The translations under genes were made by a program, and so were the position numbers. A stretch of DNA of 41,982 nt. Origin: an uncultured Verrucomicrobiota bacterium (GTDB lineage: Bacteria > Verrucomicrobiota > Kiritimatiellia > RFP12 > UBA1067). Shown here piece by piece: positions 5,216 to 39,350 of this stretch. The stretch spans positions 1-41,982 of the forward strand of contig CAMOCC010000019.1 in the NCBI GenBank assembly GCA_946610035.1, read 5' to 3'. A model generated the notes under the pieces. The model had not been told where the DNA came from. It worked only from the letters and a program-made list of their open reading frames with translations, and searched no databases. Position 1 is the stretch's first letter; each line of letters begins with the position of its first letter.

Positions 5216-8209
5216 TCAACTCCCCCACTTGAACCACTGGTCGGGATATTCGCCTGAAACTTCGGCGAGTGCGTCGGCATACCCCGCAGCCATGCCGTTC
5301 ACGTCGTCCTTGAGCCGCCTCACGATTGCGCGGTAGCGCCCGGGGCGCTCCTCGACGCATGCGACGAAGTAGACCGGATGCTCCAGCGCACGGGCGAGGC
5401 GGAACGCCCCCTCCGCGAGCTCGAATTCGCGTCCGCGCGCCGTCACGCGCCGCACGCGCCCGAAGGTGCGGTCCGCCGCCATGACGAGCGAATCGCCCCT
5501 GTCGAGCGCGTCTCCCGCCGCGAAGACAGTCCCCGCGCCGAACTCCGATATCGGATGGATGACGACCTTCCGGCGCTTAGCGTGGCGGAGGTAGAAGCGG
5601 TTGAAGACGCCTGTGCGATCGAACTCCATCCAGGCATGGAAGACGACGTCGCATTCCCCGAGCGCGGCGAGGACCTCTATCGTGCCGACATGGGACGAGA
5701 GGACGAACACTCCGCGCCGCGCCTCGACGTCCGCGACGAACGCCTCCGCATCGCGCGAGCCGTCCAAAACGACCTCCGGCAGCCGTCCGCCCTCGGCCAT
5801 GACGACAAGCTTGTCAGAAAGCGAGCGAGTGAAGGCGACGGTCTTCGCCATGCGCGGCGAGGCCCGCCTCACACCGCCGGAGAAGAGCCACACCGTCGCC
5901 CCGACAAGCGAGGCGAGGAGGTGGAGCGCGCCGAGTCCGAACACGCGGTATACGAGCCACAGCGTCTCCATGCCGAGAGGCGAGGCGCCGTGCTCCGTCT
6001 TCTCCCCATGCTCGGGCCGCCTTTCGACCGCCGTCGCAAACGCAGCGAGGAAGGCCACGGGGAGTCCGACGCCGAGCGTCAAGCCGAAGGCACCGACCAC
6101 GGGGAAGGACGCGAATGCCAGGAGTCCGAAGCCGACCAGGCTCGTGAGAAGAGAGCAGACGGCGGGCTTGAGCGCGGCGAAGCCTCCGTCCCTGAGGAAT
6201 ACGGCGTAGTCTATTCCCATTCCGACGAGGAGGAAGGACGCGAGAAGGTGGAAGAGGTTGACGCTCCGTCCCATCCAGCCCAGCGCCGATCCGACGACGG
6301 CGAGCGCGAGGAGCGAGGGCGCGAGGACGGAGAGGGCGTGGCGGCGGTATATTGCAAGGAGTATGGCGAGCATGAGGCAAAGCGAAAACCCGAGCCTCCT
6401 CAAAGTCTCGTGCGTCCATCCCGTCAGCACCTCGGCAAGGCGCCTTCTCGGCTGGAAGAACTCAACCCCGCACTGCCCTTCTCCAGCCCTATCCGACCCT
6501 TCTCCGACCCCATCCGACCCTACTCCGACCCTAATCGACCCTAGCTCCACCGAGGGCACCACAAGCGAATCCCCGCAGACGAAGGCATGTGCGACGACCG
6601 CCGGAAGCTCCCCGAACCCGATCGCCTCCGGCGGCCGCGGCGCGGCGGGCGCGGCGATTCCAAGCGCCGCCGCGTGCGCCTCGCCCTGTTCCGCGTAGAG
6701 TCTTGCGACGTCTTGCGCAACGGCGCGCCGCACGGCGAGCGACGGAATCAGCGCGGAAAGGTGCGGCGTCCCTTCGGGAATCGCAAGCGACTCCTCCTTG
6801 GCGATGAGTTCTTCGAGGCTTCCGCCGCCGATCACCAAAGTGCCGCGCTCGCCGTCGGCGGCGCCGCTGCGCTCCGCGAGGAAGCGCTCGGCGGCGGCGA
6901 TGTCTGCGGGCGAACGATACAGCGACTCCGGCGTGGTTGCGAAGCGGACGAAGCATAGTCCGGCGCCGGCAGCCGCCGCGACGAGCGCCGCTACAGTCTT
7001 GACCAAACGATTGCGGCTTGCGAGCCAGATTGCGGACGGCCCGTCGTCGTCCGTTTCGTCCCTCGCCTCCCTCGGGTAGCCGAAGAGCACCATCGCCAGC
7101 GCGGCGGCGAGCCCCGTCCCCAGGAACACCGCGCTCTGGCGCAGCACTGGAAGCGACGACATGAGAAGCGGCAGCAGACTCACCTCCGTGGTTGCCCACG
7201 ATACGACAAGAGACTTAACGACTTGGCGATTGCATCCGCGCCTGCGCAACAGCCAGTGGAATGAGTAGTCCACGACGAGTCCGAGAAGCGTGGTCCCGAG
7301 GACTATCGTCATCAAGTGGATCGAGTCGAAGGATACGGCGAGCGCGGCGAAACCCGCCAGCGCGGCCGTCGCAATGGAGAGGGCGAGAAGCGGCAGCCAG
7401 CGCCACGAGCCGAAGGCGAAAAGCGAGAGGAGGATTATGAAGAGGACGGACGCAACGGACAGCGCCCCGATCTCGCGCTTGCATTTCGCCGCAGTGACGG
7501 CGGTGTGGAGCGGAACCCCGCATGCGGCGAAGGATACGCCCTCGCGGGCGGACGCGGCGAACGCCTCGTCGAGGCGCGCCTTGAAGTCCATCAGCCTGTC
7601 CGCGTCGGACGCGACTTCGCGCTTCAGTTCCATGACGAGCATTACGGCTGTGACGCCGTTAGTCTCCGCCGTGAGGAGTCCGCGCCTCGGCGTCCAGCCC
7701 GCCTGGGCGGACGACGCAAGCGACTTCACGTAGTCCTCGGAGAGTCCGAACGGATCGACCGCGACCGGAAACAGCGGCGGCGATGGATCTGTGAAGAGGC
7801 GCTTCACATGGCGCCTTGCGATCATCGCGCGTCCCTCCGGCGTCGCAAGGTCGGCGCGCGCGGACGGAGATACGAGGCCCGCCCCGTGGGCGGCGACGAA
7901 GTCGAGGACGTCCCCGAGGCCGTCCGCATCGACGCGGCAGCGGACCGCTTCGCAGTCGTTCGTCGGGAGCCTCGTGGCGAGGGCCAGGGCGGACTCCGCC
8001 GCAGCGGCCGCATCGGGCGACGACACGAGGACCGGGACCATGGCGGACGACTTCGCGCGGACCGCCTCGGGTACGGCCTTCACTGCGTCGCCGACAAGGT
8101 CTTCCAGTGAAGTGCGGACGGCGACGGATTTCGAGACGAAGGCTACGGCCGCAAGCGCTGCGAGGGCGATCGGCGCGAGGACGGCGAAGATAATGCGCTT
8201 CGAAGGCAC
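5216..8209 (-). CDS. RND/MMPL lipid exporter fused to a LpxL-like acyltransferase
   Basis: This 997-residue two-part protein has an N-terminal exporter of the COG4258/MMPL type. An N-terminal membrane anchor, a periplasmic loop, a five- to six-helix bundle with GLVVDYSFHWLL, a second periplasmic loop, and a second bundle with GMGIDYAVFLRDG (the Asp typical of proton-driven RND pumps) follow in order. After about residue 760 comes a LpxL/HtrB-type acyltransferase domain: SSHVGTIEVL (an HX4E variant of HX4D/E), then VMAADRTFG, and a C-terminal DQWFKWGS resembling the family's QWxW tail. Start is GTG with AAGGAG overlapping the previous stop. In-frame GACCCTA repeats lie in the second periplasmic loop (about residues 555-574). 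In aryl polyene clusters these two functions are usually separate genes; the fusion suggests export and acyl transfer are coupled. Confidence 0.88.
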   Translation of the reverse strand: MPSKRIIFAVLAPIALAALAAVAFVSKSVAVRTSLEDLVGDAVKAVPEAVRAKSSAMVPVLVSSPDAAAAAESALALATRLPTNDCEAVRCRVDADGLGDVLDFVAAHGAGLVSPSARADLATPEGRAMIARRHVKRLFTDPSPPLFPVAVDPFGLSEDYVKSLASSAQAGWTPRRGLLTAETNGVTAVMLVMELKREVASDADRLMDFKARLDEAFAASAREGVSFAACGVPLHTAVTAAKCKREIGALSVASVLFIILLSLFAFGSWRWLPLLALSIATAALAGFAALAVSFDSIHLMTIVLGTTLLGLVVDYSFHWLLRRRGCNRQVVKSLVVSWATTEVSLLPLLMSSLPVLRQSAVFLGTGLAAALAMVLFGYPREARDETDDDGPSAIWLASRNRLVKTVAALVAAAAGAGLCFVRFATTPESLYRSPADIAAAERFLAERSGAADGERGTLVIGGGSLEELIAKEESLAIPEGTPHLSALIPSLAVRRAVAQDVARLYAEQGEAHAAALGIAAPAAPRPPEAIGFGELPAVVAHAFVCGDSLVVPSVELGSIRVGVGSDGVGEGSDRAGEGQCGVEFFQPRRRLAEVLTGWTHETLRRLGFSLCLMLAILLAIYRRHALSVLAPSLLALAVVGSALGWMGRSVNLFHLLASFLLVGMGIDYAVFLRDGGFAALKPAVCSLLTSLVGFGLLAFASFPVVGAFGLTLGVGLPVAFLAAFATAVERRPEHGEKTEHGASPLGMETLWLVYRVFGLGALHLLASLVGATVWLFSGGVRRASPRMAKTVAFTRSLSDKLVVMAEGGRLPEVVLDGSRDAEAFVADVEARRGVFVLSSHVGTIEVLAALGECDVVFHAWMEFDRTGVFNRFYLRHAKRRKVVIHPISEFGAGTVFAAGDALDRGDSLVMAADRTFGRVRRVTARGREFELAEGAFRLARALEHPVYFVACVEERPGRYRAIVRRLKDDVNGMAAGYADALAEVSGEYPDQWFKWGS
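6489..6544 (-). repeat. In-frame 10/11-bp GACCCTA-type repeat inside the exporter gene
   Basis: Five CCGACCC/TCGACCC words lie at alternating 10- and 11-bp spacing, so two units make 21 bp, or seven codons. The minus strand reads GSIRVGVGSDGVGEGSDRAG-like sequence. Of the three minus-strand frames of this unit, only this one lacks stop codons (the others contain TAG). The same peptide pattern appears in the UDG-like protein and in DnaG. Confidence 0.9.
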
Positions 8210-8215
8210 CTTCGG

Positions 8216-8803
8216 TCACTCCTTCCAGAGAAGGTGTCCGCGCCGTGCGAGCTCTGTGAAGACGAGCGTCGTCACGCCTCCGTCGGCCGACTTGAGAACG
8301 GCCTTGTCGACAGTCGCGCCGCCTGTTATCTCGACGGACTCGGCGAGCCGCTTCATATCCCCGACCTTCGGCTCGAAGCGGAGCGTCCACCTCCCGTCGT
8401 CGAGGAACCTCGTCTCCACGGTGAACGCACCGTCGAAGGCCTTCGGGTCGCCGGCGAGGAAGGCGTCCGTCTCGCGGCGGACGTCGTCGTAGTGCGGGAG
8501 GTCCTTCAGCGGCTTCACGCGGCGTCCGTCCTCGTCCGCAAACGCCATTTCGTTCGTGGTCATCGTGACGGTCGAGGGGAACGGATGCCTGACGTCCCAG
8601 ACGATCCCCCTTCCGGCGGCGCAGGAGACGACGCCAGTCGAGACGAGCGTTGCGGTCGAACCCGCAAGCTTCCGCTCCATCCTCCATGCGGCGTCGGAGT
8701 CAAGCGCGCGCCTGAGCGCCGATTCGCAAGTGGACGGTATCGTCATGGCGGCGGCGGCGTGGACGAAGGCGAATGCGGCGATGGCTGCGAGACGTGAAAT
8801 CAT
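8216..8803 (-). CDS. LolA-like periplasmic lipid/lipoprotein carrier
   Basis: This 195-residue protein has a clear Sec signal peptide (MISRLAAIAAFAFVHAAAAM, cleavage after an AAA run). The mature part fits COG2834/LolA-type carriers: amphipathic strands such as LVSTGVVSC, RGIVWDVRHPFPSTVTM, and FRFEPKVGDMKRLAESVEI that would build a half-barrel for a lipid tail. It is the LolA-like member normally found in aryl polyene and related lipid cassettes. The ATG overlaps the stop of the adenylation-dehydratase gene by ATGA (8800-8803), and the exporter starts 6 bp after its stop. It would accept the lipid in the periplasm and pass it toward the outer membrane (inference from family and context). Confidence 0.85.
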   Translation of the reverse strand: MISRLAAIAAFAFVHAAAAMTIPSTCESALRRALDSDAAWRMERKLAGSTATLVSTGVVSCAAGRGIVWDVRHPFPSTVTMTTNEMAFADEDGRRVKPLKDLPHYDDVRRETDAFLAGDPKAFDGAFTVETRFLDDGRWTLRFEPKVGDMKRLAESVEITGGATVDKAVLKSADGGVTTLVFTELARRGHLLWKE

Positions 8804-10119
8804 TGCGGCGCCCCCTCCACGACGCCGGACGTACAGCGTCCGTTCGGCCCCGCGATCTCGAATTCGAACGAGCCCTCCCCGCGGCGCTTGACCGAGAGCG
8901 AGACCTCCTCGCCGGGGACGATTATCTTCTGGAACTTGAGTCGCTTGAAGACGCACGATTCGGGATAGTCGCGGAAGACCTGCCTTGCAAAGTGGCGGAT
9001 GAAGTAAAGCTGGGCGACGCCGGGGAGGATGGGGAACACGGGGAAGTGCCCCTTGAAGCAGGATAGGTCCGGAGGGAAGGAAAGCCGCGCCGCCAATGCG
9101 TCCGCCGACTCCTCCCATGAGAGGACCGCGGGTTCCGCGCACCAGGCGGCGAGCGCGTTCCGCACCGCCGCGGCGGTTGTCTTCCCCTGCTCGTTGTGCG
9201 GGAGTTCGCGGACGAAGCGGATGCGACGCGGGAAGGCCGACTCTCCGACGGCTTCGAGGAGGTCGCGGCGCAGGCGCGAGGCGAGGTCCGAGCAGCGCCC
9301 CTTCGCCAGCTCCGCCGCGCCTGCGGGGGAAAGGACCACCAATGCGCCGAGCCGGGCGACTCCGCTGCCGTAGGATTCGGCGCGGACGCGCGAGACGAGC
9401 GGATGGGACTCCATCGTCGCTTCGACGGCGGGAAGGGAAACGAACTTCTCGAGAATCTTCACACGGCGGTCGAGCCGTCCGAGGAGGAGGAAGCGGTCCG
9501 GCGACGTGAACTCCACCGCGTCCGCCATGACGAAAGGCCTCTCCATCGCGAACGGGGAATCGACGGCAAGCCCCTTCTCCCGGCTGCCTGTGGCCGACAC
9601 GCCCGGGACGAGCGTCCATTCAGGTCCGGCGGACTGCCTGCGCCACGCGACGGACCCCGCCTCGGTGCTACCGTACATCTCGAAGGGCGAGATTCCGAGG
9701 ATCTCGCGAACGGCCTGCGACGTCTCGGCGCGGAGGAGGCTCCCGGACGTCACGACGTCCTTCACGCGGCCCCTGAGCGAGGCGAAGTCGGGATGGGCGA
9801 GGGCCTTCTCAAGGAAGGAGGGCGTCGTCACGAGGAGGATCGCCCCCTCTCCGCTGCAGGCGAGGGAGGCGAGCTCCTCGACGGACGTCACGACCGCGTC
9901 CTCGACGCGGCTCCCGGCCGCCTCGGGTGCGCGGACGCGCCACAGTGCGCCGTACATGTGCTCGGGCCTCACTGTCGCGACGACGCGCGGAGCGTCCGCC
10001 CATATCTCGGGGAACGCCGCGACGAGCGCCGCGGCGTCCGCCCGCAGCGACTCCTCGGTCCGCACGATCCTCTTGGACGCCCCGGTCGAGCCGGAGGTTC
10101 CGAATACGACCTCACGCAC
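8800..10119 (-). CDS. AMP-dependent acyl ligase fused to a FabZ-like dehydratase
   Basis: This 439-residue fusion has an N-terminal adenylation (ANL) domain. Phosphate loop FGTSGSTGASKRI is at residues 6-18, the EMYGSTEAG motif near 165, LGRLDRRVKI near 230, and the C-terminal lysine motif NEQGKTTAAAV near 310. Residues about 335-439 form a hot-dog domain with KGHFPVFPILPGVAQ, the HFPxxPxxPG signature of 3-hydroxyacyl-ACP dehydratases. The usual acidic residue after PGV is Gln here. The ANL part begins at the phosphate loop and lacks the usual N-terminal subdomain. The start is GTG, overlapping the COG4648 gene by 8 bp. It probably loads an acid onto the neighbouring ACPs and dehydrates the extended chain. 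Confidence 0.85.
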   Translation of the reverse strand: MREVVFGTSGSTGASKRIVRTEESLRADAAALVAAFPEIWADAPRVVATVRPEHMYGALWRVRAPEAAGSRVEDAVVTSVEELASLACSGEGAILLVTTPSFLEKALAHPDFASLRGRVKDVVTSGSLLRAETSQAVREILGISPFEMYGSTEAGSVAWRRQSAGPEWTLVPGVSATGSREKGLAVDSPFAMERPFVMADAVEFTSPDRFLLLGRLDRRVKILEKFVSLPAVEATMESHPLVSRVRAESYGSGVARLGALVVLSPAGAAELAKGRCSDLASRLRRDLLEAVGESAFPRRIRFVRELPHNEQGKTTAAAVRNALAAWCAEPAVLSWEESADALAARLSFPPDLSCFKGHFPVFPILPGVAQLYFIRHFARQVFRDYPESCVFKRLKFQKIIVPGEEVSLSVKRRGEGSFEFEIAGPNGRCTSGVVEGAPQ

Positions 10120-10498
10120 GGCGCACCCTCCTTCTGACGATCCATTCGCCGGCGAACATCAGCCCCATGAGAACGTAGGCGATGCAGCCGTTGTAGAGCG
10201 CCCACGCCTCGTAGGACATGAAGACCGTTGCGACGGTGACCGCGAGGTGTGCCGTCAGGAACGCCACCCATGCCCGCGTCACATTGCGGCAGTAGGCGAC
10301 GCCCCTTCCGTCAAGGCGCTCGCCCATCCTGCGGGCGAAGACCTCGACGAGCGGCGTCCTGCAAAGGGATGCGGCGAACGCGCACAGGACGCATGCGACG
10401 ACCATCACCGGGTACAGGCGGAACCAGACGTTCGCCCGGAGGCTGTATATCGCCCAGACGACGGCTATCGACACGACCGCCTGTACGACCCGCTTCAT
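10112..10498 (-). CDS. COG4648-type small membrane protein of aryl polyene cassettes
   Basis: This 128-residue integral membrane protein has about four hydrophobic segments (residues 4-22, 28-45, 76-97, 100-118). It carries the family landmarks YCRNVTRAWVAF and WALYNGCIAYVLMGLMFAGEW. Homologues (COG4648) sit between the ACPs and the AMP-ligase in aryl polyene clusters, as here. The biochemical role is not established. The start overlaps the upstream ACP stop by ATGA and the stop overlaps the ligase gene, so it is tightly coupled. It is shorter than many COG4648 proteins, which run to about 200 residues. Confidence 0.75.
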   Translation of the reverse strand: MKRVVQAVVSIAVVWAIYSLRANVWFRLYPVMVVACVLCAFAASLCRTPLVEVFARRMGERLDGRGVAYCRNVTRAWVAFLTAHLAVTVATVFMSYEAWALYNGCIAYVLMGLMFAGEWIVRRRVRRA

Positions 10499-10752
10499 TT
10501 AGACTGTTCGCCCTGGAGGCGGACTATCACGTCCGCGACGTCGCCAAGCGTGCGAATCGACTTGAAGTCCTCAGCCTTGACCTTGAGGCCCGTCTGGTTC
10601 TGGAGGCGGACCACGAGGTCCACCGCGTCGATGCTGTCCAGGTCGAGGTCCTCGAAAAGGCGTGCGTCGGCGGTAAGGGACTCCCTACTGCACTCGAACT
10701 CGGCCTCAAGGGTGTCCGCTATCGCGGCGAGAATCTCCTCTTTCGTCTTCAT
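10495..10752 (-). CDS. Acyl carrier protein (second of a pair)
   Basis: An 85-residue acyl carrier protein. The phosphopantetheine attachment serine lies in DLDLDSIDAVDLV (Ser at about residue 40), with the acidic helix II expected for partner docking. It starts 4 bp after the stop of the first ACP, with GGAGG inside the end of that gene as Shine-Dalgarno, and its stop overlaps the COG4648 start. Aryl polyene cassettes typically carry two ACPs. Which one takes the starter and which the growing chain cannot be told from sequence. Confidence 0.93.
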   Translation of the reverse strand: MKTKEEILAAIADTLEAEFECSRESLTADARLFEDLDLDSIDAVDLVVRLQNQTGLKVKAEDFKSIRTLGDVADVIVRLQGEQSK

Positions 10753-10756
10753 GTCT

Positions 10757-11035: not shown

Positions 11036-11043
11036 ATCGTCCT

Positions 11044-13647: not shown

Positions 13648-13656
13648 GATTCGGAT

Positions 13657-13685: not shown

Positions 13686-13708
13686 TACCCAATTCACGGC
13701 GGTTGGCG

Positions 13709-16612: not shown

Positions 16613-17509
16613 CGCGGAGACGGAGGCGAAGCCATGCCGCCCGCAGTACGCGACAATCCCGTCGCAGACCTTCGCTACGACGTCCGGATCGCTGAACGTC
16701 GCCGTCCCCACCGCGACAGCCGTCGCGCCCGCGAGCATGAACTCTATCGCGTCCTTCGCCTCGTAGACGCCCCCCATCGCGAGGATCGGGAGCTTGGTCG
16801 CCTTGTGCGCGTCGTAGACGAGCTTCACCGCGGCGGGGTGGATGCCGCGTCCGGAAAGCCCCCCCGTCACGTTCGCGAGGACGGGACGCCGCCTTTCGAT
16901 GTCGATGACCATCGCCGGTATCGTGTTGATGAGCGAAAGAGCGTCCGCCCCCGCGTCCTCGCACGCCTTCACGTACGGCGCAATCGACGGGACGTTCGGC
17001 GCGAGCTTCACGAGAAGCGGCAGAGTGGTCGCCTTGCGGACGGCCGACACGACCTCGGATAGGACCTTCGGATCCTGCCCGAAGGTGTGTCCGCCCGCCT
17101 TGACGTTCGGACAGCTCACGTTCATCTCAAGGGCGCCGATGGACGGATGCGCCGCCTCGGTGAGCCTGCGCGCGACGGCGGCGTACTCGTCGACGGACCC
17201 GCCCCAGATGTTGACGATCATCGGCACCTTCACGTTCTGCGCATACCAGGGGACGGTGAACTTGAGGAAGTGCTCCACGCCGGTTCCCTGGAGTCCGATG
17301 GCGTTCACGAGCCCGCCCGGAACCTCCGCGTGTCGCGGCATCGCGTTCCCCGGCCAGGGGTCCACGCGAATCCCCTTCGCCGTGACCGCCCCTAGCTTCG
17401 AGTAGTCGACAGCTCCAATGTACTCCGTTCCGTAGCCGAATGTCCCGCTCGCGGTGGCGACGGGCGTCGCCATCTCGAGTCCTCCCAAATTGACTTTTGT
17501 ATCGATCAT
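16589..17509 (-). CDS. pyrD: Dihydroorotate dehydrogenase, class 1B catalytic subunit
   Basis: FMN enzyme that oxidises dihydroorotate to orotate in pyrimidine synthesis. At 306 residues it shows TASGTFGYGTEY (residues 19-30), AKGIRVDPWPGN, the catalytic-loop NVSCPNVKAGG with Cys133 (the class 1 base), VKLAPNV, and FMN-binding GGLSGRGI and LAMGGV. Cys instead of Ser and the adjacent pyrK place it in class 1B, which passes electrons to NAD+. The 5' side is odd: a heptamer repeat runs right up to the ATG and there is no Shine-Dalgarno. GGGAGGA occurs before an internal ATG (residue 13), so a shorter start is possible. Confidence 0.95.
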   Translation of the reverse strand: MIDTKVNLGGLEMATPVATASGTFGYGTEYIGAVDYSKLGAVTAKGIRVDPWPGNAMPRHAEVPGGLVNAIGLQGTGVEHFLKFTVPWYAQNVKVPMIVNIWGGSVDEYAAVARRLTEAAHPSIGALEMNVSCPNVKAGGHTFGQDPKVLSEVVSAVRKATTLPLLVKLAPNVPSIAPYVKACEDAGADALSLINTIPAMVIDIERRRPVLANVTGGLSGRGIHPAAVKLVYDAHKATKLPILAMGGVYEAKDAIEFMLAGATAVAVGTATFSDPDVVAKVCDGIVAYCGRHGFASVSALTGALEV

Positions 17510-17604
17510 GGTGGTTGGTGATTGGTGGTTGGTGATTGGTGGTTGGTGGCTGGTGGCTAGTGATTCGTGGTTGGTGGTTGATAACATTCTCCAATCACCA
17601 ATCA
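17510..17604 (-). repeat. Heptamer repeats filling the pyrK-pyrD gap
   Basis: The whole 92-bp gap is built of 7-bp units of the type GGTTGGT/GATTGGT/GGCTGGT on the plus strand (17510-17578). Two units in the reverse sense, CCAATCACCAATCACC, lie at 17591-17606 and include the pyrK TGA stop. On the mRNA the GGTGATTGG copies near the pyrK stop can pair with the CCAATCACC copies before the pyrD ATG, forming a large hairpin. Confidence 0.88.
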
Positions 17605-18421: not shown

Positions 18422-19039
18422 TTAGGTCGCTGCGGCCCTGGCCGCCTGCTTGATTGTCGTCCACATGGACTGTTTGATCTTAACGAGGGCCGGAGTGACT
18501 ACTTTATAGCGAAGAATGTAGTTGGGGGAGTATGTGACGAAAACCTCTGCGCCGGAATCCGTGCGGAAGTGCTGCCCTGGCGAGAGGTTCCGCCCGGGGA
18601 ACCACTTCCTCAAGGCGAACGAGCCGAGGATTATGTACACCTTCGCCTTCGGCATCGGCGTAGCGTCCACGACGGGCGCCGACGACGGTTCCAGCTTCAA
18701 TGCGGACGTAATCTTCTCCATCATGTCCACACCCGCCTGAGTAAGCGGCCTGTCGTGCAGGAAGCAAAGGGTGGGTGGCTGGTGGTTGGTGGCTGGTGAT
18801 TGGTGGTTGGTGGCTGGTGGCTGGTGATTGGTGGCTGGTGATTGGTGGTTGGTGGCTGGTGGCTGGTGGTTGGTATCACTACCTGACCCTATTCCGACCC
18901 TATCCGACCCTAAACCGACCCTATCCGACCCTAAATCAACAAGGAGCGAGCGGTCTATTTCAAAAACACGGTTGCCGAGCTCGCGCTCCAGCGCGAGCTC
19001 GGCCTCCAATCCGTCAAGGATGTACTCGATCGCCGTCAC
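18422..19039 (-). CDS. UDG-fold-like protein with in-frame repeat linker, apparently non-catalytic
   Basis: This 205-residue protein has three parts. Residues 1-35 form an acidic helix (TAIEYILDGLEAELALEREL) like the N-terminal helix of family-4 uracil-DNA glycosylases from related bacteria. Residues about 35-90 are pure repeat: GSDRVGLGSDRVGIG, then TNHQPPA/TNHQSPA heptads. The C-terminal 115 residues resemble a shrunken UDG core (KVYIILGSFALRKWFPG, then VFVTYSPNYILRY). The GE(A/P)PG water-activating motif and the four cluster cysteines are absent, and the HP of the second motif is SP. Layout also recalls the UDG-fold polymerase III psi subunit (HolD). The GTG start overlaps the galE stop (GTGA), supporting it. 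It could also be a decaying gene. Confidence 0.55.
   Translation of the reverse strand: MTAIEYILDGLEAELALERELGNRVFEIDRSLLVDLGSDRVGLGSDRVGIGSGSDTNHQPPATNHQSPATNHQPPATNHQSPATNHQPPTLCFLHDRPLTQAGVDMMEKITSALKLEPSSAPVVDATPMPKAKVYIILGSFALRKWFPGRNLSPGQHFRTDSGAEVFVTYSPNYILRYKVVTPALVKIKQSMWTTIKQAARAAAT
18774..18873 (-). repeat. In-frame heptamer array (about 14 units) in the UDG-like gene
   Basis: Continuous 7-bp units GGCTGGT, GGTTGGT and GATTGGT on the plus strand. On the coding strand (ACCAGCC, ACCAACC, ACCAATC) all three frames are free of stop codons; the opposite strand is not (TGA arises in one frame). Since 7 and 3 share no factor, 21 bp encode a 7-residue repeat, here TNHQPPA/TNHQSPA. Confidence 0.92.
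18885..18935 (-). repeat. In-frame alternating 11/10-bp GACCCTA repeat in the UDG-like gene
   Basis: Five GACCCTA words are spaced 11, 10, 11, 10 bp (GACCCTATTCC, GACCCTATCC, GACCCTAAACC, GACCCTATCC, GACCCTAAATC). The exact 21-bp super-period encodes GSDRVGL on the minus strand. It is adjacent to, but distinct from, the heptamer array. Confidence 0.92.

Positions 19040-30734: not shown

Positions 30735-30738
<4 letters not shown>
29665..30738 (-). CDS. VWA-domain membrane protein, BatA/BatB type
   Basis: This 357-residue protein has two N-terminal membrane segments (about 6-22 and 54-70), a cytoplasm-distal VWA domain and a C-terminal helix (about 332-350), the BatA/BatB layout. MIDAS metal-site residues are TVDISGSM (DxSxS), then VTFGGFAET, and LLSDGVNN. 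A charged insertion (LGQIRAFERSGRRLSSADEA, about 108-135) sits just after the DxSxS motif and looks longer than usual. It is the last gene of the moxR cluster and overlaps the BatD-like gene by ATGA. Such clusters are linked with stress or envelope functions; the role here is unknown. Confidence 0.88.
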
Positions 30739-31687
<949 letters not shown>

Positions 31688-31691
<4 letters not shown>

Positions 31692-32578: not shown

Positions 32579-32585
32579 GTTCGCC

Positions 32586-33548: not shown

Positions 33549-33549
33549 T

Positions 33550-35484
33550 TCAGTTTTCTCCTTTTATGATGTCGTTCTTGATCAAATCGTCTATCATCTC
33601 CTTGACGGTCGCCCACCTCGCCTGCGAGAAGCGCTTGAGGTCAAGGGATATCTTGAGCCGCAGCTCGTCCGCCTCCGGCCCCCCTGCGGCGGGGAGGCTC
33701 CCCCTCACGCGCATCAGACGGTCGCGCCAAAGGGCGCGTATGAAATCCTGCAGGATGTCCGTCGGCTTTAGCCCGCTCTCCTGGAAGCGCCCCGCCTCCA
33801 GGAGGACGCGGTCCATCCACATGCTTTCGGTGCCCTCGAGTCCGTCCGCGAACGCACCGAAGAGGTCCTCGCCCCGTACGGACTCGTCGCGCCACGTCTC
33901 GACGAAGCGCCGCGTGAAGTCGTGTCCGAACACGAACGGCGGCAGGAACTGCCCCACCATCCCGTCAAGCGTCCGCTCGTACTCGTTCGCCATCAGGAAG
34001 GCCATGAGCGCCGTCTCGCGCTCGGGCGGCGGCACGGCCTGCTCTGGCGGCTCGGAGTCGGGGTCGGGGGAATTAGGGTCGACTAGGGTCGGATTGGGGT
34101 CTTCTAGGGTCATGTCAGGGTCGACCCTATTCGACTCTACTCCGACCCTAGATGACCCTAATCCACCTCTTGTCTCCGCCTTGACCTTCTCCAGGTCCTC
34201 CGCAAGGGCCGCGGCCGGCAATTTGAGAAGCTTCGCCGCCTCGTCCACCAGGCTCGCCTTCAGTACCGCCGAGGGACACGCCGCAATCGTCGACAAGACC
34301 GCCCTTGAAATCCTCGCGACCGCGTCGATTGAATCCGGCTTCGCCTCCTTTGCCCTCTCGACGCGGCACTGGAAGCTCACTATGGACTCCGCCCCGTCTA
34401 TGAGCCGCCGCAGGTCGGCCGCCGGATGCGTCCGCAGGAAGGAATCCGGGTCGTCCCCTCCCGGCAGCCCCACGACCCTGACCGGCATCTCCATCGCAAG
34501 CAGCATCCCGGCGACCTTTATCGTCGCCTTGTGCCCCGCGCCGTCGTCGTCGTACATGAGCACCGCCGCATCCGCCACGCGCTTCACCATCCGCGCGTGC
34601 TCCTCGGTGAAAGCCGTCCCCTGCGACGCGACCGCCGTCGGGAAGCCGGAGATGTGGAGTCGTATCGTGTCTATCTGCCCCTCGCAGCAGATGATCTCGC
34701 GGTGCGGGGCGCGCGCTATCGCGCCAGCCGCCTTGTCGAAGCCGAAGAGGACGTTGGACTTCTTGAAGATCAACGTCTCGGGGGAGTTCACGTACTTGCC
34801 GGACTTCTTGTTCTCGACAATCTGCCGCCCCGAGAACGCGACGACCCTTCCCTGCCTGTCGCGTATCGAGAACATGAGGCGCCCGCCGAAGCGGTGGTAG
34901 CCGTGGTCGCCCGGACCCTTCGGCGGCAGTATCACGCCAGCCGCCTCCAACTCCTCGGGCGTGTACTTGTACTTCTCGGCCCACTTGAGAATCGGCGCGA
35001 CTCCGAGCGGTGCGTAGCCGATGAGCCATTCCTCCTGCGTCGCGTCGTCCAGCGAGCGCTTCTCCAGGTACTCGCGCGCGATCGCCGCCTCCTTGGTCTT
35101 CACAAGGCACCTGCGGTAGAACTGGGCGAGCTCGGCCATGAGCGCGTAGAGGCGCTTGCGCCGTCCGGTCTGGGGATCGGACGTCTCCTCGATCTTCACG
35201 CCGCATGAGTCCGCGAGCTTCTTCACCGCGTCGACGAAGGACAGGCCCTCCATCTTCTCGACGAACTTTATGGCGTCGCCCGACTCCCCGCAGCCGAAGC
35301 AGTGGTAGTAGCCCTTCGACTCGTTTATGTTGAAGCTGGGGGTCTTCTCGTTGTGGAACGGACAGCACGCCTTCAGGCTCGCGCCCGCGCGCCGAACCGT
35401 CACTCCATAAGAAGAGACAAGGTCCGCAAGACTGGTGCGGACCCTTATCTCCTCCAATACGGAATCTGTTATTCCACCTGCCAT
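33550..35484 (-). CDS. dnaG: DNA primase DnaG
   Basis: This 644-residue replication primase has an N-terminal CHC2 zinc finger (CCPFHNEKTPSF ... YYHCFGCGESG, about 38-70), and the RNA polymerase domain with TOPRIM residues ICCEGQIDTIR (Glu; the usual EGYMD is EGQID) and MYDDDGAGHKA. The C-terminal helicase-binding region starts about residue 490. In the linker between them (about 442-475) lies the in-frame GACCCTA array (SSRVGVESNRVDPD, then LEDPNPTLVDPN). ATG at 35484 is preferred over 35490 because the -10 box ends 4 bases before 35490. Placement upstream of moxR, without rpoD, is unusual. Confidence 0.96.
   Translation of the reverse strand: MAGGITDSVLEEIRVRTSLADLVSSYGVTVRRAGASLKACCPFHNEKTPSFNINESKGYYHCFGCGESGDAIKFVEKMEGLSFVDAVKKLADSCGVKIEETSDPQTGRRKRLYALMAELAQFYRRCLVKTKEAAIAREYLEKRSLDDATQEEWLIGYAPLGVAPILKWAEKYKYTPEELEAAGVILPPKGPGDHGYHRFGGRLMFSIRDRQGRVVAFSGRQIVENKKSGKYVNSPETLIFKKSNVLFGFDKAAGAIARAPHREIICCEGQIDTIRLHISGFPTAVASQGTAFTEEHARMVKRVADAAVLMYDDDGAGHKATIKVAGMLLAMEMPVRVVGLPGGDDPDSFLRTHPAADLRRLIDGAESIVSFQCRVERAKEAKPDSIDAVARISRAVLSTIAACPSAVLKASLVDEAAKLLKLPAAALAEDLEKVKAETRGGLGSSRVGVESNRVDPDMTLEDPNPTLVDPNSPDPDSEPPEQAVPPPERETALMAFLMANEYERTLDGMVGQFLPPFVFGHDFTRRFVETWRDESVRGEDLFGAFADGLEGTESMWMDRVLLEAGRFQESGLKPTDILQDFIRALWRDRLMRVRGSLPAAGGPEADELRLKISLDLKRFSQARWATVKEMIDDLIKNDIIKGEN
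34060..34162 (-). repeat. Palindromic GGGTC/GACCC array in the dnaG linker
   Basis: The plus strand has about five GGGTC units at 10-11 bp spacing (TTAGGGTC, GACTAGGGTC, GGATTGGGGTC, TTCTAGGGTC, ATGTCAGGGTC) followed by four GACCC units in the reverse sense. They meet at a perfect 12-bp palindrome AGGGTCGACCCT (34117-34128). The array could extrude as a cruciform or fold as a long hairpin in the dnaG mRNA, yet it remains open in the dnaG frame. Confidence 0.9.
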
Positions 35485-35493
35485 TGGCATGAT

Positions 35494-35502
35494 ATTATAT
35501 CA
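35494..35502 (-). promoter_or_regulatory. dnaG promoter, extended -10
   Basis: The minus strand reads TGATATAAT. Nine bases separate the -10 from the ATG at 35484, and only three from the ATG at 35490. The transcript start is expected about 7 bases downstream, so the mRNA should be leaderless and the 35484 start is favoured. The -35 region is weak. Confidence 0.72.
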
Positions 35503-35540
35503 TATCAGAGGCATTGGCGGGTGGAAAAACGGGAGCTGCG

Positions 35541-36740
35541 TCATTCGCCGAAGATGCTGTCGAGCGCATCGGATATCATGTCCGTCGCCTCCTCGAGGTC
35601 CTCCTCCTTGAGTACGAGCGGGGGGAGGAAGCGGACGACGTTGCCGCCTGCGGTGAGGGCGAGGATGCCCTGCTCCTTGAGCGCGTCCACGACGGCCTTC
35701 GGGTCGCCGTCCACGACGAGCCCGATCATTAGGCCCTTGCCGCGGACTTCGAGGAGCTGGTCGTACTTGTCGACGAAGCTCTGGAGCGCCTCGCGGAAGA
35801 GCGCGCCCACCTCTACCGCGCGCCGGAGGAGGTCCTCCTCCTCGATGACGTCGATGACGGCGAGCGCGGCGGCGGCGGCGACGGGATTGCCGCCGAAGGT
35901 CGACGCGTGGGTGGACGTCGTGAAGACGTCCGCAAGCCTCTCGTTCGAGACGAGCGCACCCATCGGGATGCCGTCCGCGATCGACTTTGCAAGCGTGAAG
36001 AGGTCGGGCTTGACGTCGTAGCCCTGCCAGGCGAACCACGTGCCGGTCCTGCCCATGCCTGACTGCACCTCGTCGCAGATGAGGAGGAGGTTCCTCTCGT
36101 CGCAGAGCGCGCGCAGGCCCTTCATGAACTCGTCCGTCGCGGGCGTGACGCCGCCCTCGCCCTGGACGGCCTCGACCATGACGGCGACCGTCTTGTCCGT
36201 AAGCGCCGCCTTGACGCTCTCGAGGTCGTTGTAGTCCGCATACGCGAAGCCGACCGGCAGCGGGTCGTAGCCCTCCTGGCACCAGGACTGCGCGGTCGCG
36301 GCGACCGTAGCGAGCGTGCGGCCGTGGAAGCCGTTCCTGAAGGTGACGATTTCGTAGCGTCCGCCGTTCTGGGCGCCCCACCTGCGCGCGAGCTTGATGG
36401 CGGCCTCGTTCGCCTCGGCGCCGGAGTTCGCGAAGAACACCTTGCCGCCGAGGCCGGAAAGCCCGACGAGCCTGGCGGCGAGCTGGGTGGCGGGCTCGTT
36501 GGCGAAGAGGTTCGAGGAGTGAGTGAGCTTCGCCGCCTGGTCCTGGATGGCCTGCACGACCTTGGGGTGGCAGTGGCCGACGTTGTGTACGCCGATGCCG
36601 GAGGTGAAGTCGTAGAGGACGAGGCCGTCCACGTCGCGGACGGTCACTCCCTTGCCGCTCGCTATCACGACGGACGGCGCGTACGTCGGCATGAGCGAGT
36701 TTCTGTACTGTTCGAGGATTTCCTGTGTCTTGTTGCTCAT
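35541..36740 (-). CDS. argD: Acetylornithine aminotransferase
   Basis: This 399-residue PLP aminotransferase converts N-acetylglutamate semialdehyde to N-acetylornithine in arginine synthesis. It has YDFTSGIGVHNVGHCHPKVV (about 44-63), FFANSGAEANEAAIKLAR, CDEVQSGMGRTGTWFA, and the PLP lysine in LFTLAKSIADGIPMGAL. The related GabT and RocD enzymes are less likely, given that argB overlaps it by ATGA. It is the second gene of argB-argD; the carB product also feeds this pathway. Confidence 0.95.
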   Translation of the reverse strand: MSNKTQEILEQYRNSLMPTYAPSVVIASGKGVTVRDVDGLVLYDFTSGIGVHNVGHCHPKVVQAIQDQAAKLTHSSNLFANEPATQLAARLVGLSGLGGKVFFANSGAEANEAAIKLARRWGAQNGGRYEIVTFRNGFHGRTLATVAATAQSWCQEGYDPLPVGFAYADYNDLESVKAALTDKTVAVMVEAVQGEGGVTPATDEFMKGLRALCDERNLLLICDEVQSGMGRTGTWFAWQGYDVKPDLFTLAKSIADGIPMGALVSNERLADVFTTSTHASTFGGNPVAAAAALAVIDVIEEEDLLRRAVEVGALFREALQSFVDKYDQLLEVRGKGLMIGLVVDGDPKAVVDALKEQGILALTAGGNVVRFLPPLVLKEEDLEEATDMISDALDSIFGE

Positions 36741-37597
36741 TCGGTTATCTCCGTTCCCACGCCATCACGCGTGAATATTTCCAAAAGCAGCGAGTGCGGC
36801 ATGCGTCCGTCGACGAGATGGACCTTCTTCACGCCCGCACGTATTGCGTCTTCGCAGCTCTCTATCTTCGGGAGCATGCCCCCCGAGATCGAGCCTTCGG
36901 CCTTCAGCTGTTCGACGGACTTCAGGTGCAGCGTCGAAAGGAGCGTCGCGGGATCCGCCGGATCGCGCAAGAGCCCCGGGACGTCCGAGACGAGCGCAAA
37001 CTTGCGCACCTTGAGCTCCTTGGCGAGCGCCGCCGCCGCGAGGTCGGCGTTGATGTTGTAGAGGTGGCTGTCGTCGATCCCCGTGGCGAGCGGAGTCACC
37101 ACCGGGATTATGCCCGCGTCGAGCATCTCGCGCACCGCGCGCGCATCTACGGTCTTCACCTCGCCTACGTACCCGCGGTCGGGCTTCTCGATCTTCTTCG
37201 CGCCGAATATCCAGTTGCCGTGGATCGGACGCGCGTTCACGCCCTTCGCGAGCAGCCGCCTCACGAGGTCGGTGTTCACGACGTTGTTGAGCGTGCGCCT
37301 CACGATCTCCATCGTCGGCTCGTCGGTGACGCGCTGGCCCTCGACGAAGAGGGGTTCGTGACCGGACTCCTTGATCGCCTTCGAAATCGCCTTGCCGCCG
37401 CCGTGGACGATGACGACCTTGATGCCGACGGCGCGCATGAACGCGATGTCGTTCATGAGCGAATCGAGGTTCTCCTCGACCTCCATCACGGACCCGCCGA
37501 GCTTGACAAGCACGACCGACCCGCGGAAGTCGATGAAATAAGGCAAAGCCTCGGTGAGAACCGCAGCCTTGGCCATAGCTGTATCTAGTCTGTCCAT
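36737..37597 (-). CDS. argB: Acetylglutamate kinase
   Basis: This 286-residue amino-acid-kinase family enzyme phosphorylates N-acetylglutamate, the second step of arginine synthesis. Motifs are VLVKLGGSVME (about 27-37), VVIVHGGGKAISKA (about 62-75), GNWIFGAKKIEKP, and NINADLAAAALAKEL. The start at 37597 (MDRLDTAMAK) is chosen because the -10 box ends 11 bases upstream; the longer frame reads through the promoter. Another ATG at 37576 (MAKAAVL) is possible. It precedes argD in an operon. Confidence 0.95.
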   Translation of the reverse strand: MDRLDTAMAKAAVLTEALPYFIDFRGSVVLVKLGGSVMEVEENLDSLMNDIAFMRAVGIKVVIVHGGGKAISKAIKESGHEPLFVEGQRVTDEPTMEIVRRTLNNVVNTDLVRRLLAKGVNARPIHGNWIFGAKKIEKPDRGYVGEVKTVDARAVREMLDAGIIPVVTPLATGIDDSHLYNINADLAAAALAKELKVRKFALVSDVPGLLRDPADPATLLSTLHLKSVEQLKAEGSISGGMLPKIESCEDAIRAGVKKVHLVDGRMPHSLLLEIFTRDGVGTEITE

Positions 37598-37607
37598 AGA
37601 AGATAGT

Positions 37608-37616
37608 ATTATATCA
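37608..37616 (-). promoter_or_regulatory. argB-argD promoter, extended -10
   Basis: The minus strand reads TGATATAAT with 10 bases to the ATG at 37597. A run of seven T residues and a small GGGG/CCCC hairpin (37624-37640) lie just upstream and could be a weak terminator of the GH43 gene or part of the spacer region. No arginine-repressor box was identified. Confidence 0.72.
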
Positions 37617-37716
37617 AAAAAACGGGGGGATATGTGCCCCAAAATTGTATTTTTTACGCGGCGCGGTGATGGGCATATGTCGGTTAGACTACGCCGTGAC
37701 GGGGAGTGGATCGACG

Positions 37717-39219
37717 CTAGCGCACCGCGAACTCGAAGGATTCAAGATCGAGCCAGTTGGAATGGCGGTTCTTCGGATCCCTCATCGAGCCCATGCTCGA
37801 GAGGCCTAGTCCGGACTTACTGAAGTCCGCCTCCACCGTCATTCCTATCTTGAGCCCCTGCCATACCGAGTTCTCGATCCGGAACGGCTTCGAGGTGAAT
37901 TCGCCAAGTGAGAGGACAGCCTCTCCGACCCTCGGATTGTCCTTGGACGGTTCCACGCGCGCGACGATGGAGGCCTTCGCCTTCCACACGGTCCTCGCTC
38001 CGGCGGAAAACCGCTCCGCCGGGATGCGGCCGAGCCGCTTCGTTTCGTCGCCGTCCTTGAGGACGACGTCGAACCTGTCGTTCTCCGTATCCGGCTTAAG
38101 TCCGATGAGGACGTTCCTGTCGCCCACGAGGACCAGTCCGAGGATTCCCCTTTCGCCGTCCTTCGCCCAGACTGTCGCATTCGCCGTCGCAGTGAACGAC
38201 GGGGCGGGTATCTTCGTGAAGTACGTCGCGCCCGAGTAGAGGCGGCGCCCCGAGGGAGTCTCGAAGATGCGGCGGTCCGATTGGTCGGCGACCCAGTCTA
38301 CGGCAAGCGGCGCGGACGAACCGTCCCCGGCGGCGTCGGAGGCGGACACGGGATTGCCGCCGTCGCCCATGACCGGCCAGCCGTCCTCGGACCACGCAAG
38401 CGGCTGGAGGTGGAGGACGCGTCCGGCGTATCCCTTGTCCTGGAAGTGGAGGAACCACTCCGAGCCGTCGGCCTTCCTGACCCACGCGCCCTGGTGCGGG
38501 CCGTTCACCCGGGTGTCGCCCTTCCGGAGGACGATGCGCGGTTCGAACGGACCCTTCAGGCTGCGAGACCTCAGGGCAAGCTGCCATCCGTGTATGACGC
38601 CGCCCGCAGGCGCGAAGATCCAGTACCAGCCGTCGCGCTTGTAGAGCTTCGGGCCCTCGATCGTGTGGTTGCCGTCGGGGATGCCGTCGTACACGATGCG
38701 TCCGTCGAGGTTCAGGACAGAGTTGAACCCGGCGCGCGATGCGGCGTAGGCGTGGACGAGGTGGAAGGAGCCGTCGTCGTCCCAGAGCGGGCACGGATCG
38801 ATGAATCCGCGCCCCGGCTTTATCAGCTCCGGCTCGGACCACTCTTCCGCCGGGTCCTTCGCCGTCGTCCTGTATATGCCGCGGTCGGGGTCGCCCCAGA
38901 AGATGTACCAGAGTCCGTCGTGGAAGCGGATCGCCGGCGCCCACACGCCGTGTCCGCGGACGCCGAAGTCGGCGCCCTTCGGCGACGACTTCAAGGCGTG
39001 GTTCGCAAGCTCCCAGTGGACGAGGTCGGTCGACCGGTAGAGCGGCAGCCCGGGGATGTCGGTGAAGCTGGACGTCACGAGCCAGAAGCTCTTCCCGTCC
39101 GCCGTGTCGCAGTCGGGATCCGACATGTCGGCGTCCACAACCGGGTTTACGTACGCGCCAAACGCTGTCGCGCACACGAATGCCGCCAAGGCGGCGAAAG
39201 AGGCATTTCTTGTAATCAT
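37717..39219 (-). CDS. Secreted glycoside hydrolase family 43 protein
   Basis: This 500-residue GH43 five-bladed beta-propeller enzyme, probably a beta-xylosidase or arabinofuranosidase type, is exported by a Sec signal (MITRNASFAALAAFVCATAFGA). Catalytic residues fit the family: Asp34 in MSDPD, Asp141 in RGFIDPCPL, and Glu188 in NHTIEGPKLYKR. After the propeller (about 25-310) a C-terminal beta-sandwich (YSGATYFTKIP to end) follows, as in XynB-type GH43 proteins. It is monocistronic, between the repeat-filled gap and argB. Substrate cannot be fixed. Confidence 0.92.
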   Translation of the reverse strand: MITRNASFAALAAFVCATAFGAYVNPVVDADMSDPDCDTADGKSFWLVTSSFTDIPGLPLYRSTDLVHWELANHALKSSPKGADFGVRGHGVWAPAIRFHDGLWYIFWGDPDRGIYRTTAKDPAEEWSEPELIKPGRGFIDPCPLWDDDGSFHLVHAYAASRAGFNSVLNLDGRIVYDGIPDGNHTIEGPKLYKRDGWYWIFAPAGGVIHGWQLALRSRSLKGPFEPRIVLRKGDTRVNGPHQGAWVRKADGSEWFLHFQDKGYAGRVLHLQPLAWSEDGWPVMGDGGNPVSASDAAGDGSSAPLAVDWVADQSDRRIFETPSGRRLYSGATYFTKIPAPSFTATANATVWAKDGERGILGLVLVGDRNVLIGLKPDTENDRFDVVLKDGDETKRLGRIPAERFSAGARTVWKAKASIVARVEPSKDNPRVGEAVLSLGEFTSKPFRIENSVWQGLKIGMTVEADFSKSGLGLSSMGSMRDPKNRHSNWLDLESFEFAVR

Positions 39220-39225
39220 GAATAA

Positions 39226-39254
39226 ATTCTACCATATTCTCCCGGCCCATGCAA
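39226..39254 (-). promoter_or_regulatory. Promoter of the GH43 gene
   Basis: The minus strand has TTGCAT (-35, 39249-39254), a 17-bp spacer and TGG-TAGAAT (-10, 39226-39231). Six bases separate the -10 box from the ATG at 39219, predicting a leaderless mRNA. Confidence 0.65.
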
Positions 39255-39285
39255 ACGGGCAAAAATGAAAAACACGGGGCGGGCG

Positions 39286-39350
39286 AGTCCCTATCCGACC
39301 CTAAAAGACCCTATCCGACCCTAGCGACTAGCGACTAACGACTAGCGACT
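39286..39350. repeat. GACCCTA units followed by GCGACTA heptamers
   Basis: The 344-bp gap between GH43 and the surface protein gene (39220-39563) is mostly repeats. First come TCCGACCCTA-type units (39293-39322), then GCGACTA, GCGACTA, ACGACTA, GCGACT in exact 7-bp steps (39324-39350). The GACCCTA family is the same as in the exporter, DnaG and UDG-like genes; here it is intergenic. No open reading frame of note is present. Confidence 0.9.

What the first reader, a model, noticed from the sequence alone, without database searches (positions are those of the whole stretch)
6489..39322. One 21-bp (10+11) repeat family inserted in frame in three unrelated proteins
GACCCTA-type arrays occur in the exporter (6489-6544), the UDG-like gene (18885-18935), dnaG (34060-34162) and an intergenic gap (39286-39322). 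In coding copies the alternating 10/11 spacing gives an exact seven-codon period encoding GSxRVGx. The other two minus-strand frames contain TAG, so only one phase can be tolerated. The copies all sit in loops or linkers. This looks like a spreading repeat under selection for frame, or a shared peptide linker. Repeat spread in protein linkers is known for some organisms (for example Rickettsia palindromic elements), but I do not recognise this family.
Basis: partly seen in the sequence, partly recalled or inferred. Interest (0 to 1): 0.85.

Follow-up and report, generated by a model that had tools for sequence, protein, structure and literature searches.

The report
Frame-tuned DNA repeats inside housekeeping genes
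A gut bacterium carries dozens of arrays of one ten-letter DNA repeat, and about half sit inside protein genes, many of them housekeeping genes, where the repeat spacing differs so that the protein can still be read through.

Summary
The window's genome (a gut/rumen Kiritimatiellae MAG, judged by its relatives' titles) has 42 arrays of the heptamer GACNCTA/TAGNGTC with 3-4 nt spacers. Twenty lie in frame in proteins (DnaG, DnaX, PriA, MutS, UvrA, MnmE, HisD, IspH and others), one (HemW-like) is ambiguous, 21 are intergenic or at gene ends. In this genome non-coding arrays step by 10 bp (64 of 64 steps of 10 or 11); genic arrays alternate 10/11 (57 and 35), which keeps TAG out of frame; no TAGNGTC unit is in the stop phase (0 of 57). 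In relatives the split is softer: 41 of 102 steps are 11 in open frames, 12 of 111 elsewhere (duplicates removed). Two-armed arrays always run TAGGGTC then GACCCTA (18 of 18). The arms encode unrelated peptides and third codon positions are not freer: a DNA repeat, not a peptide linker. Sister species have empty sites, or other repeat families, in the same loops. It occurs in 12 of 57 genus-mates and 0 of 38 other genomes. It works like Rickettsia palindromic elements but differs in architecture. What spreads or maintains it is unknown.

The parts
5216..8209 (-).
   Evidence: open frame and coding periodicity; no Pfam hit; ortholog in G061, 52% identity, aligning on both sides of the array
6485..6543 (-). 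Array 1, one-armed (TAGGGTC sense), three exact units at 6516, 6527, 6537 plus degraded units; encodes LGSIRVGVGSDGVGEGSDRAGEG
   Evidence: the G061 ortholog has a shorter loop
18422..19039 (-).
   Evidence: orthologs in G064, G003, G073 align on both sides of the linker in the same frame; no Pfam hit; upstream gene is epimerase/GDP-mannose dehydratase family; start codon choice is inference
18885..18933 (-). Array 2, five units, spacing 11/10/11/10, encodes LGSDRVGLGSDRVGIGS
18770..18874 (-). Separate heptamer tract (GGTTGGT-type, period 7) in the same linker, encodes TNHQPPATNHQSPA repeats
33550..35490 (-). Host gene 3: dnaG primase
   Evidence: Pfam zinc ribbon, DNAG_N and Toprim; match in 54 of 58 genus genomes, own included
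34074..34160 (-). Array 3, 87 bp, two-armed palindrome: four TAGGGTC-sense units, then GACCCTA-sense units (exact or with one mismatch), unit starts 0/10/21/31 and 38/49/59/70/80, in the variable linker after the Toprim domain
   Evidence: linker alignment with 29 relatives; RNA hairpin -59.5 kcal/mol, z -8.0 for 34065-34170
39297..39323 (+). Array 4, intergenic, three exact units, spacing 10/10
   Evidence: outside called genes

Best explanation
This is a dispersed DNA repeat family built from a decamer: a bipartite heptamer GAC-N-CTA (reverse TAG-N-GTC) plus a variable 3-nt spacer. Its units stack into one-armed arrays or two-armed palindromes, with the TAGGGTC arm always first and the GACCCTA arm second. 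It spreads and expands at the DNA level in one genus of gut Kiritimatiellae. Outside genes units mostly follow each other every 10 bp (always, in the window's genome; about nine times in ten in relatives). Inside genes arrays survive only in loops or linkers that tolerate extra residues, and only if no stop codon is in frame. For the TAGGGTC arm this forces 10/11 alternation (21 bp, seven codons). The GACCCTA arm uses the same solution, or 10-bp steps with C or T after the unit that would otherwise read TAA or TAG. Shown here: the unit, the arm order, the coding/non-coding spacing difference, stop avoidance, conservation by motif position rather than codon position, empty sites in sister species, and length changes in whole coding multiples between species (0, 1 or 2 extra 30-bp blocks in KpsF). 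Inferred: that the repeat is selfish or neutral, that purifying selection filters frame, and that a trans-acting DNA-binding or DNA-copying factor recognises the heptamer.
For: 137 unit pairs in the genome, reversed-pattern control 0; 42 arrays. Spacing in G000: coding 57x10 and 35x11, non-coding 64x10 and 0x11, Fisher p=3.9e-10; successive steps coding (10,11) 29, (11,10) 27, (10,10) 1; non-coding (10,10) 38 of 38 (40 of 42 arrays used). Relatives: arrays in open frames of 150 aa or more 61x10 and 41x11; other arrays 99x10 and 12x11 (loci fetched twice removed by hand). Phases in G000: TAGNGTC 29 in phase 1, 28 in phase 2, 0 in the stop phase; GACNCTA 38 and 38 in the two safe phases, 1 in the risky one. 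Eight sister-species arrays: 10/9/0 and 26/18/3, and all four risky-phase units of the pooled set are followed by C or T. Non-coding heptamer positions 95-100% conserved against 69/45/69% for the spacer, 42 internal units. Coding mismatches follow motif position. Host families named for 18 of 19 genic arrays, with matches on both sides of the array or across it in 13. Loops bounded by conserved blocks in relatives. Empty or differently filled sites in sister species. Found in 12 of 57 genus-mates and 0 of 38 other genomes of the order.
Against: No spreading enzyme or binding protein was found; Y1/RAYT-type matches occur in 39 of 58 genus genomes, 11 of the 13 with arrays and 28 of the 45 without, which shows no clear link. 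The strict 10-bp rule of non-coding arrays is a property of this genome: in relatives 12 of 111 such steps are 11, six of them in one array (L036). No target-site duplication was seen by eye, without a formal test. Spacers of the two arms are not complementary above chance (p=0.65, 23 pairs), so the arms are not simple fold-back copies. An exact seed heptamer at the ancestral site is present in only 2 of 8 loci. The G000 HemW-like array (L106) does not read through in one frame. Genic arrays are depleted relative to coding density. All sequences of the family are MAGs; expression was not tested.
Confidence: 0.8

Rival explanations
1. The arrays are binding sites kept by selection (for a nucleoid, segregation or regulatory protein that binds tandem heptamers), and the coding copies are functional sites that happen to lie in genes.
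For: Heptamer conserved while spacer varies; conservation follows motif position even in genes; fixed arm order, 18 of 18; period near one helical turn.
Against: Sister species lack the arrays at the same places, and 45 of the 57 genus-mates searched gave no match to the triple pattern. The 21 non-coding arrays show no promoter bias in a rough gene map: 11 tandem, 2 divergent, 1 convergent, 7 with one neighbour unknown, against 145/19/7 for all gaps of 60 bp or more. No binding protein identified.
Confidence: 0.2
2. Ordinary tandem-repeat slippage: arrays are microsatellite-like expansions of chance heptamers, with selection filtering frame in genes.
For: 21-bp and 30-bp blocks look duplicated; the KpsF-like array has 0, 1 or 2 extra 30-bp blocks in G073, RGIG2266 and G068; exact ancestral seeds at 2 of 8 loci; similar 10- or 11-bp microsatellites exist in unrelated bacteria.
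Against: Slippage copies the spacer as faithfully as the heptamer, but spacers vary while heptamers do not. It does not explain the fixed arm order, or the same motif at 42 scattered sites with 0 reversed-control hits.
Confidence: 0.15
3. A shared peptide linker (GSxRVGx) is selected at the protein level.
For: Copies sit in linkers and loops, and LGSDRVG-like peptides recur.
Against: The other arm encodes unrelated DPNPTLK-like peptides; 21 of 42 arrays are outside genes or at gene ends; third codon positions are not freer; orthologs fill the same loops with unrelated residues.
Confidence: 0.03

Closest known systems
Rickettsia palindromic elements (RPE) and the Wolbachia coding palindromes
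   Same: Palindromic DNA repeats found between genes and in frame inside unrelated, conserved protein genes, with predicted hairpins (RPE: passages read in PMC2229807 and PMC10969869; Wolbachia: only the title of a cited paper seen)
   Different: RPEs are 105-146 bp elements with 12-bp terminal inverted repeats (PMC2229807). Here the element is an open-ended array of 7+3 nt units, 17 to 220 bp long, in another phylum, with a coding/non-coding spacing difference that the passages I saw do not describe
Heptameric repeats of Xanthomonas/Nostoc and TAACTGA repeats of Beggiatoaceae
   Same: Short motif arrays scattered through a genome, mostly between genes (passages read in PMC4692102 and PMC4679880)
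   Different: Those are 7-mer repeats, under-represented in coding regions (PMC4692102) or mostly intergenic (PMC4679880); in the passages I saw there is no 7+3 unit with variable spacer or two-armed palindrome. Here about half the arrays are in frame in named protein families
REP/REPIN elements with RAYT transposases
   Same: Short dispersed palindromic repeats (search listing and start of abstract of PMC3733652 and PMC3116915 only)
   Different: REPs are 20-40 bp palindromes tagged GTAG or CGTC at one end (PMC3733652 title and abstract start); the unit here is a decamer array, and Y1 transposase presence shows no clear link
[quoted passage not shown]
   Same: Repeat with DNA dyad symmetry in coding sequence (abstract of PMC2996958)
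   Different: A 25-residue protein motif in ORFs without assigned function, not a DNA heptamer array in housekeeping genes
Coding palindromes in Nematomorpha mitochondria
   Same: Inverted repeats inside conserved protein genes (abstract of PMC6649704)
   Different: There both arms encode conserved protein regions; here the arms encode variable loops

Membership tests
Rickettsia palindromic elements | Palindromic, hairpin-forming repeat | tested here: met
   dnaG array RNA fold z -8.0; arm order TAGGGTC then GACCCTA in 18 of 18 two-armed arrays. One-armed arrays (24 of 42) are not palindromes
Rickettsia palindromic elements | In-frame presence in unrelated conserved genes as well as intergenic copies | tested here: met
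   20 of 42 genic, 21 intergenic or at gene ends, 1 ambiguous
Rickettsia palindromic elements | Element of roughly fixed length (105-146 bp) alignable end to end | tested here: not met
   arrays span 17 to 220 bp with different unit numbers and arm lengths
Rickettsia palindromic elements | Terminal inverted repeat of 12 bp | tested here: inconclusive
   outer units are the same heptamer as inner ones; no longer terminal repeat stood out, no formal test
MITE (non-autonomous transposon) | Target-site duplication at the insertion | tested here: inconclusive
   none seen by eye in the alignments; no formal test
REP/RAYT system | Cognate Y1 (RAYT) transposase linked to the repeats | tested here: inconclusive
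   Y1_Tnp matches in 39 of 58 genus genomes (2 in G000); 11 of 13 array-bearing and 28 of 45 other genomes; the two array-bearing genomes without a match (G020, G064) are incomplete
REP/RAYT system | 20-40 bp palindrome with a GTAG or CGTC tag | tested here: not met
   unit is a 10-bp GACNCTANNN array
Heptameric simple repeats | Head-to-tail tandem 7-mers without spacer | tested here: not met
   10-bp period with conserved heptamer and variable spacer
Tandem-site centromeres or iterons (recalled class) | Dedicated binding protein for the repeated sites | not tested
   no candidate protein searched

The most novel reading that the evidence does not exclude
A trans-acting activity in this genus recognises GACNCTA and writes or extends arrays of it, and the loops of many housekeeping enzymes are standing landing sites for several such repeat families. 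Species then differ in which repeat fills which loop (GACNCTA, GGGGTCA or CACCAAG tracts, or GC palindromes), so a large part of the species-specific variation of essential proteins would come from selfish DNA under frame selection.
Probability: 0.35. Interest if true: 0.87.

Novelty: new variant of a known kind. Interest (0 to 1): 0.77.

Why it matters
It gives a clean natural experiment. One DNA unit, present in the same genome inside and outside genes, has taken two different spacings, so the effect of reading-frame selection on a spreading repeat can be read off directly. It extends in-frame selfish palindromes from Rickettsiales to another phylum and to core replication and repair enzymes (DnaG, DnaX, PriA, MutS, UvrA). 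It also suggests that the variable loops of orthologous enzymes can be filled by different repeat families in sister species.

Tried and rejected
Peptide-linker reading: rejected (two arms, two peptides). Doubt about the UDG-like copy: I first classed it as non-coding because a codon score failed near the gene overlap, then reversed this when three orthologs aligned through; it is left out of the spacing statistics. Helical-phasing reading of 10/11 (10.5 bp per turn): not supported, since non-coding arrays of G000 are strictly 10 and those of relatives mostly 10. Fold-back origin of the second arm: spacers not complementary above chance (an earlier run, paired the spacers wrongly because degraded centre units were counted, and is not used). 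Seeding by a pre-existing heptamer: exact at 2 of 8 loci, suggestive only. Y1/RAYT mobilisation: no clear link. Hits in other phyla are mostly simple 10- or 11-bp microsatellites, though one Saprospiraceae array (L045) also runs TAGGGTC to GACCCTA and was not followed. One genome of another family of the order (G054) has a single strict pair and no triple. The 25 viral-contig stretches were not examined. Structure prediction was not used, because homologs fetched through the genome search are not among the sequences that tool says it accepts. Print check: nine literature searches ran. None of the papers listed describes this repeat, but the lists were capped (for example 10 of 167 papers holding both heptamers), so this is weak evidence of absence.
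Full report
Setting. The window is contig C19 of G000, a 3.03 Mb MAG in 191 contigs. Names come from relatives only. The taxon is therefore an inference.

The observation. GACCCTA occurs 17 times in the window against 2.4 expected, in the four places named. In the whole genome the pair GACCCTA-N3/4-GACCCTA occurs 137 times (63 forward, 74 reverse) and the same pattern read backwards 0 times. Two split searches listed all 137 (92, 45). They group into 42 arrays, 4 of them in the window. I fetched the other 38 with flanks and printed all 42.

Anatomy. The unit is a heptamer plus a spacer, 3 nt as a rule. In 42 internal units of non-coding arrays each heptamer position is 95-100% conserved, the three spacer positions 69, 45 and 69%. 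Arrays are one-armed or two-armed. Two-armed arrays always run TAGGGTC units first and GACCCTA units second: 14 coding and 4 others, one of them the ambiguous L106; none in reverse. The dnaG array folds as RNA at -59.5 kcal/mol against -31.1 (sd 3.5) for shuffles. The spacers of the two arms are not complementary above chance (23 equal-length pairs from G000 and sister species, p=0.65).

Inside genes. I placed 19 arrays inside one open frame with no stop in the array. In 12 of them the same frame scored best on both sides; in 7 (L090, L096, the second of L114, L113, L118, L120, L123) I chose the frame by eye from one side and the protein sequence, later supported by the families and orthologs below. 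Pfam or NCBIfam names 18 of the 19 host proteins: glycosyltransferase, U32 peptidase, galactarate/altronate dehydratase, HisD, ThrC, two SNF2 helicases, MtaB/MiaB family, PriA, MutS, DnaX, IspH, a radical-SAM protein, MnmE, a homocysteine methyltransferase/B12 protein, TatD, UvrA and DnaG. In 13 of these the matches lie across the array or on both sides of it. The exporter has no Pfam match but an ortholog in G061. A twentieth, the UDG-like gene, is accepted because orthologs in G064, G003 and G073 align on both sides of the linker in the same frame. One array (L106, in a HemW-like gene recognised by eye) does not read through in one frame and is left ambiguous. The other 21 are intergenic or at gene ends. 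A rough gene map gives 89% coding DNA in the 604 kb read, so arrays are depleted in genes, as expected if most genic insertions are removed.

The spacing rule. Leaving out the UDG-like and L106 arrays, coding arrays have 57 steps of 10 and 35 of 11; non-coding arrays have 64 of 10 and none of 11 (Fisher p=3.9e-10). Longer gaps (coding 21 six times and 20, 42, 48 once each; non-coding 20 three times, 93 twice, 19 and 25 once each) are outside this test. Successive steps in coding arrays are (10,11) 29, (11,10) 27 and (10,10) 1; in non-coding arrays (10,10) 38 of 38. In coding arrays TAGNGTC units fall 29 times in phase 1, 28 in phase 2 and never in phase 0, where TAG would be a codon. GACNCTA units fall 38 and 38 times in two phases and once in the third, where the unit ends in TAN. 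The frame was chosen to have no stop in the array, so the absence of phase 0 is in part built in; the spacing difference, the families and the orthologs are independent of that choice. Both arrays left out: the UDG-like one has 11/10/11/10 and so is of the coding type; L106 has one arm of 10-bp steps and one of alternating steps.

Relatives. In eight sister-species arrays (chosen by eye from the 23 for coding flanks and an open frame, so leaning toward this result) phases are 10/9/0 for TAGNGTC and 26/18/3 for GACNCTA; successive steps are (11,10) 17, (10,11) 13 and (10,10) 6. All four third-phase units of the pooled set are followed by C or T, so that TAN is not a stop. A wider, mechanical count sorted the arrays of the relatives' loci by whether a frame of 150 aa or more runs through. 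With loci fetched twice removed by hand, open-frame arrays have 61 steps of 10 and 41 of 11, other arrays 99 and 12 (raw 76/49 and 137/16). So 11-bp steps also arise outside genes in relatives, six of the 12 in one array (L036); the strict rule belongs to G000, and the enrichment inside frames is general. Two-armed arrays there also run TAGNGTC first.

DNA, not peptide. Among 115 internal coding units (up to three mismatches allowed, stop-free phases only), mismatches at the middle base of the heptamer are 12-29% whether it is a first, second or third codon position; other positions are 0-15%, the 15% being the fifth base in one phase. Third codon positions mismatch in 6.9% (GACNCTA) and 9.4% (TAGNGTC), first and second together in 7.9% and 5.0%; the small excess for TAGNGTC comes mostly from the middle base (7 of 10). 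The arms encode unrelated peptides, LGSDRVG-like and DPNPTLK-like. Selection on a peptide should free third positions; it has not.

Comparison with relatives. In 18 genes, orthologs from three or four relatives each show the array at a variable loop between conserved blocks (for the exporter only G061 aligns usefully). The relative's loop is mostly shorter (by 26 residues in HisD, about 43 in the radical-SAM protein) but about equal in DnaX and MnmE, and in DnaG against 29 relatives, so insertion and replacement both occur. Among the 129 ortholog stretches scanned besides the dnaG locus itself (five of them from G000), three hold two or more clustered units: ThrC of G030 (L210), the methyltransferase gene of G064 (L238), both at a loop that has an array in G000, and L287 of G002, a locus with an array in G068.

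Sister species. Eight loci were aligned as DNA; matched flanking protein is about 66-94% identical between the sister species. Mannose-1-phosphate guanylyltransferase-like, nucleoside phosphorylase-like, QueA-like, FolC-like and PpiC-like genes (names by eye) have array-free orthologs with 3 to 56 bp at the junction, against arrays of 87 to 167 bp. In the KpsF-like loop, G073, RGIG2266 and G068 carry arrays with 0, 1 and 2 extra 30-bp blocks, G002 has CACCAAG repeats and a GC-rich stretch, G030 another C-rich stretch, and G058 and G078 a short loop. In PriA, G000 and G068 have GACNCTA arrays, while G073, G058 and G078 have GGGGTCA tracts of different length. In AlaS, G030, G078 and G000 share a different palindromic sequence. 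Here the loop is shared and the repeat family differs. A pre-existing heptamer at the site is exact in 2 of 8 loci (PpiC-like in G073, PriA in G002), so seeding is possible but unproved.

Distribution. The looser triple pattern hits G000, 12 of 57 genus-mates and 0 of 38 genomes of other genera of the order, with the control at 0 in all. The strict pair hits one genome of another family once (G054). In a collection of 84,980 species the strict triple gives 53 stretches; those outside this group are mostly 10- or 11-bp microsatellites, while several contigs of the carriers named above, a Verrucomicrobia MAG (L038) and a reindeer contig binned as Lachnospiraceae (L058) hold in-frame copies with the same peptides. 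Y1 transposases occur in 39 of 58 genus genomes, 11 of 13 with arrays and 28 of 45 without.

Verdict. The finding is real and wider than stated: a DNA repeat, found in a minority of species of one genus, that sits in housekeeping genes in frame-compatible form. It works like Rickettsia palindromic elements (read as passages in PMC2229807 and PMC10969869) but is not one: fixed length and architecture fail. What spreads or maintains it is open.

Noticed in passing
window 30735-31691 (tract 30937-30970): A further gene carries a heptamer insert in frame: perfect CCATTTT repeats encode ENGKWKMENG, near a TNHQ-type stretch. One unit is 7 bp, so a change by one unit would shift the frame.
   Followed up: partly
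window 17509-17580, 18770-18874, 39321-39350: Other period-7 tracts (TGGTGGT, GGTTGGT, CTAGCGA) lie in or near genes; the U32 peptidase (L090) also has in-frame TNHQSPT repeats beside its array.
   Followed up: no
L106 9874-10093: The HemW-like gene of G000 has the longest array (220 bp) and does not read through in one frame; the same loop of the G030 gene has an array in an open frame (L086). Pseudogene, assembly collapse or a length-variable gene cannot be told apart.
   Followed up: partly
L095 9933-10182, L117 9877-10116, L122 9976-10112: Some intergenic arrays sit inside a larger shared repeat with a GTCCGTCGCTCCGCGACGGAC palindrome.
   Followed up: no
L045: A Saprospiraceae contig carries a decamer array of TAGGGTCATT that runs TAGGGTC then GACCCTA, as here, without an open frame through it.
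   Followed up: no
L058: A reindeer contig binned as Lachnospiraceae carries an in-frame two-armed array of this family, which suggests a binning error.
   Followed up: no
L036 3920-4295: A large array without an open frame in RGIG2266 has 28 steps of 10 and 6 of 11, so strict 10-bp spacing outside genes is not universal in the group.
   Followed up: partly
window 39401-39453: A perfect 23-bp tandem repeat (2.3 copies) in the same intergenic gap as array 4.
   Followed up: no
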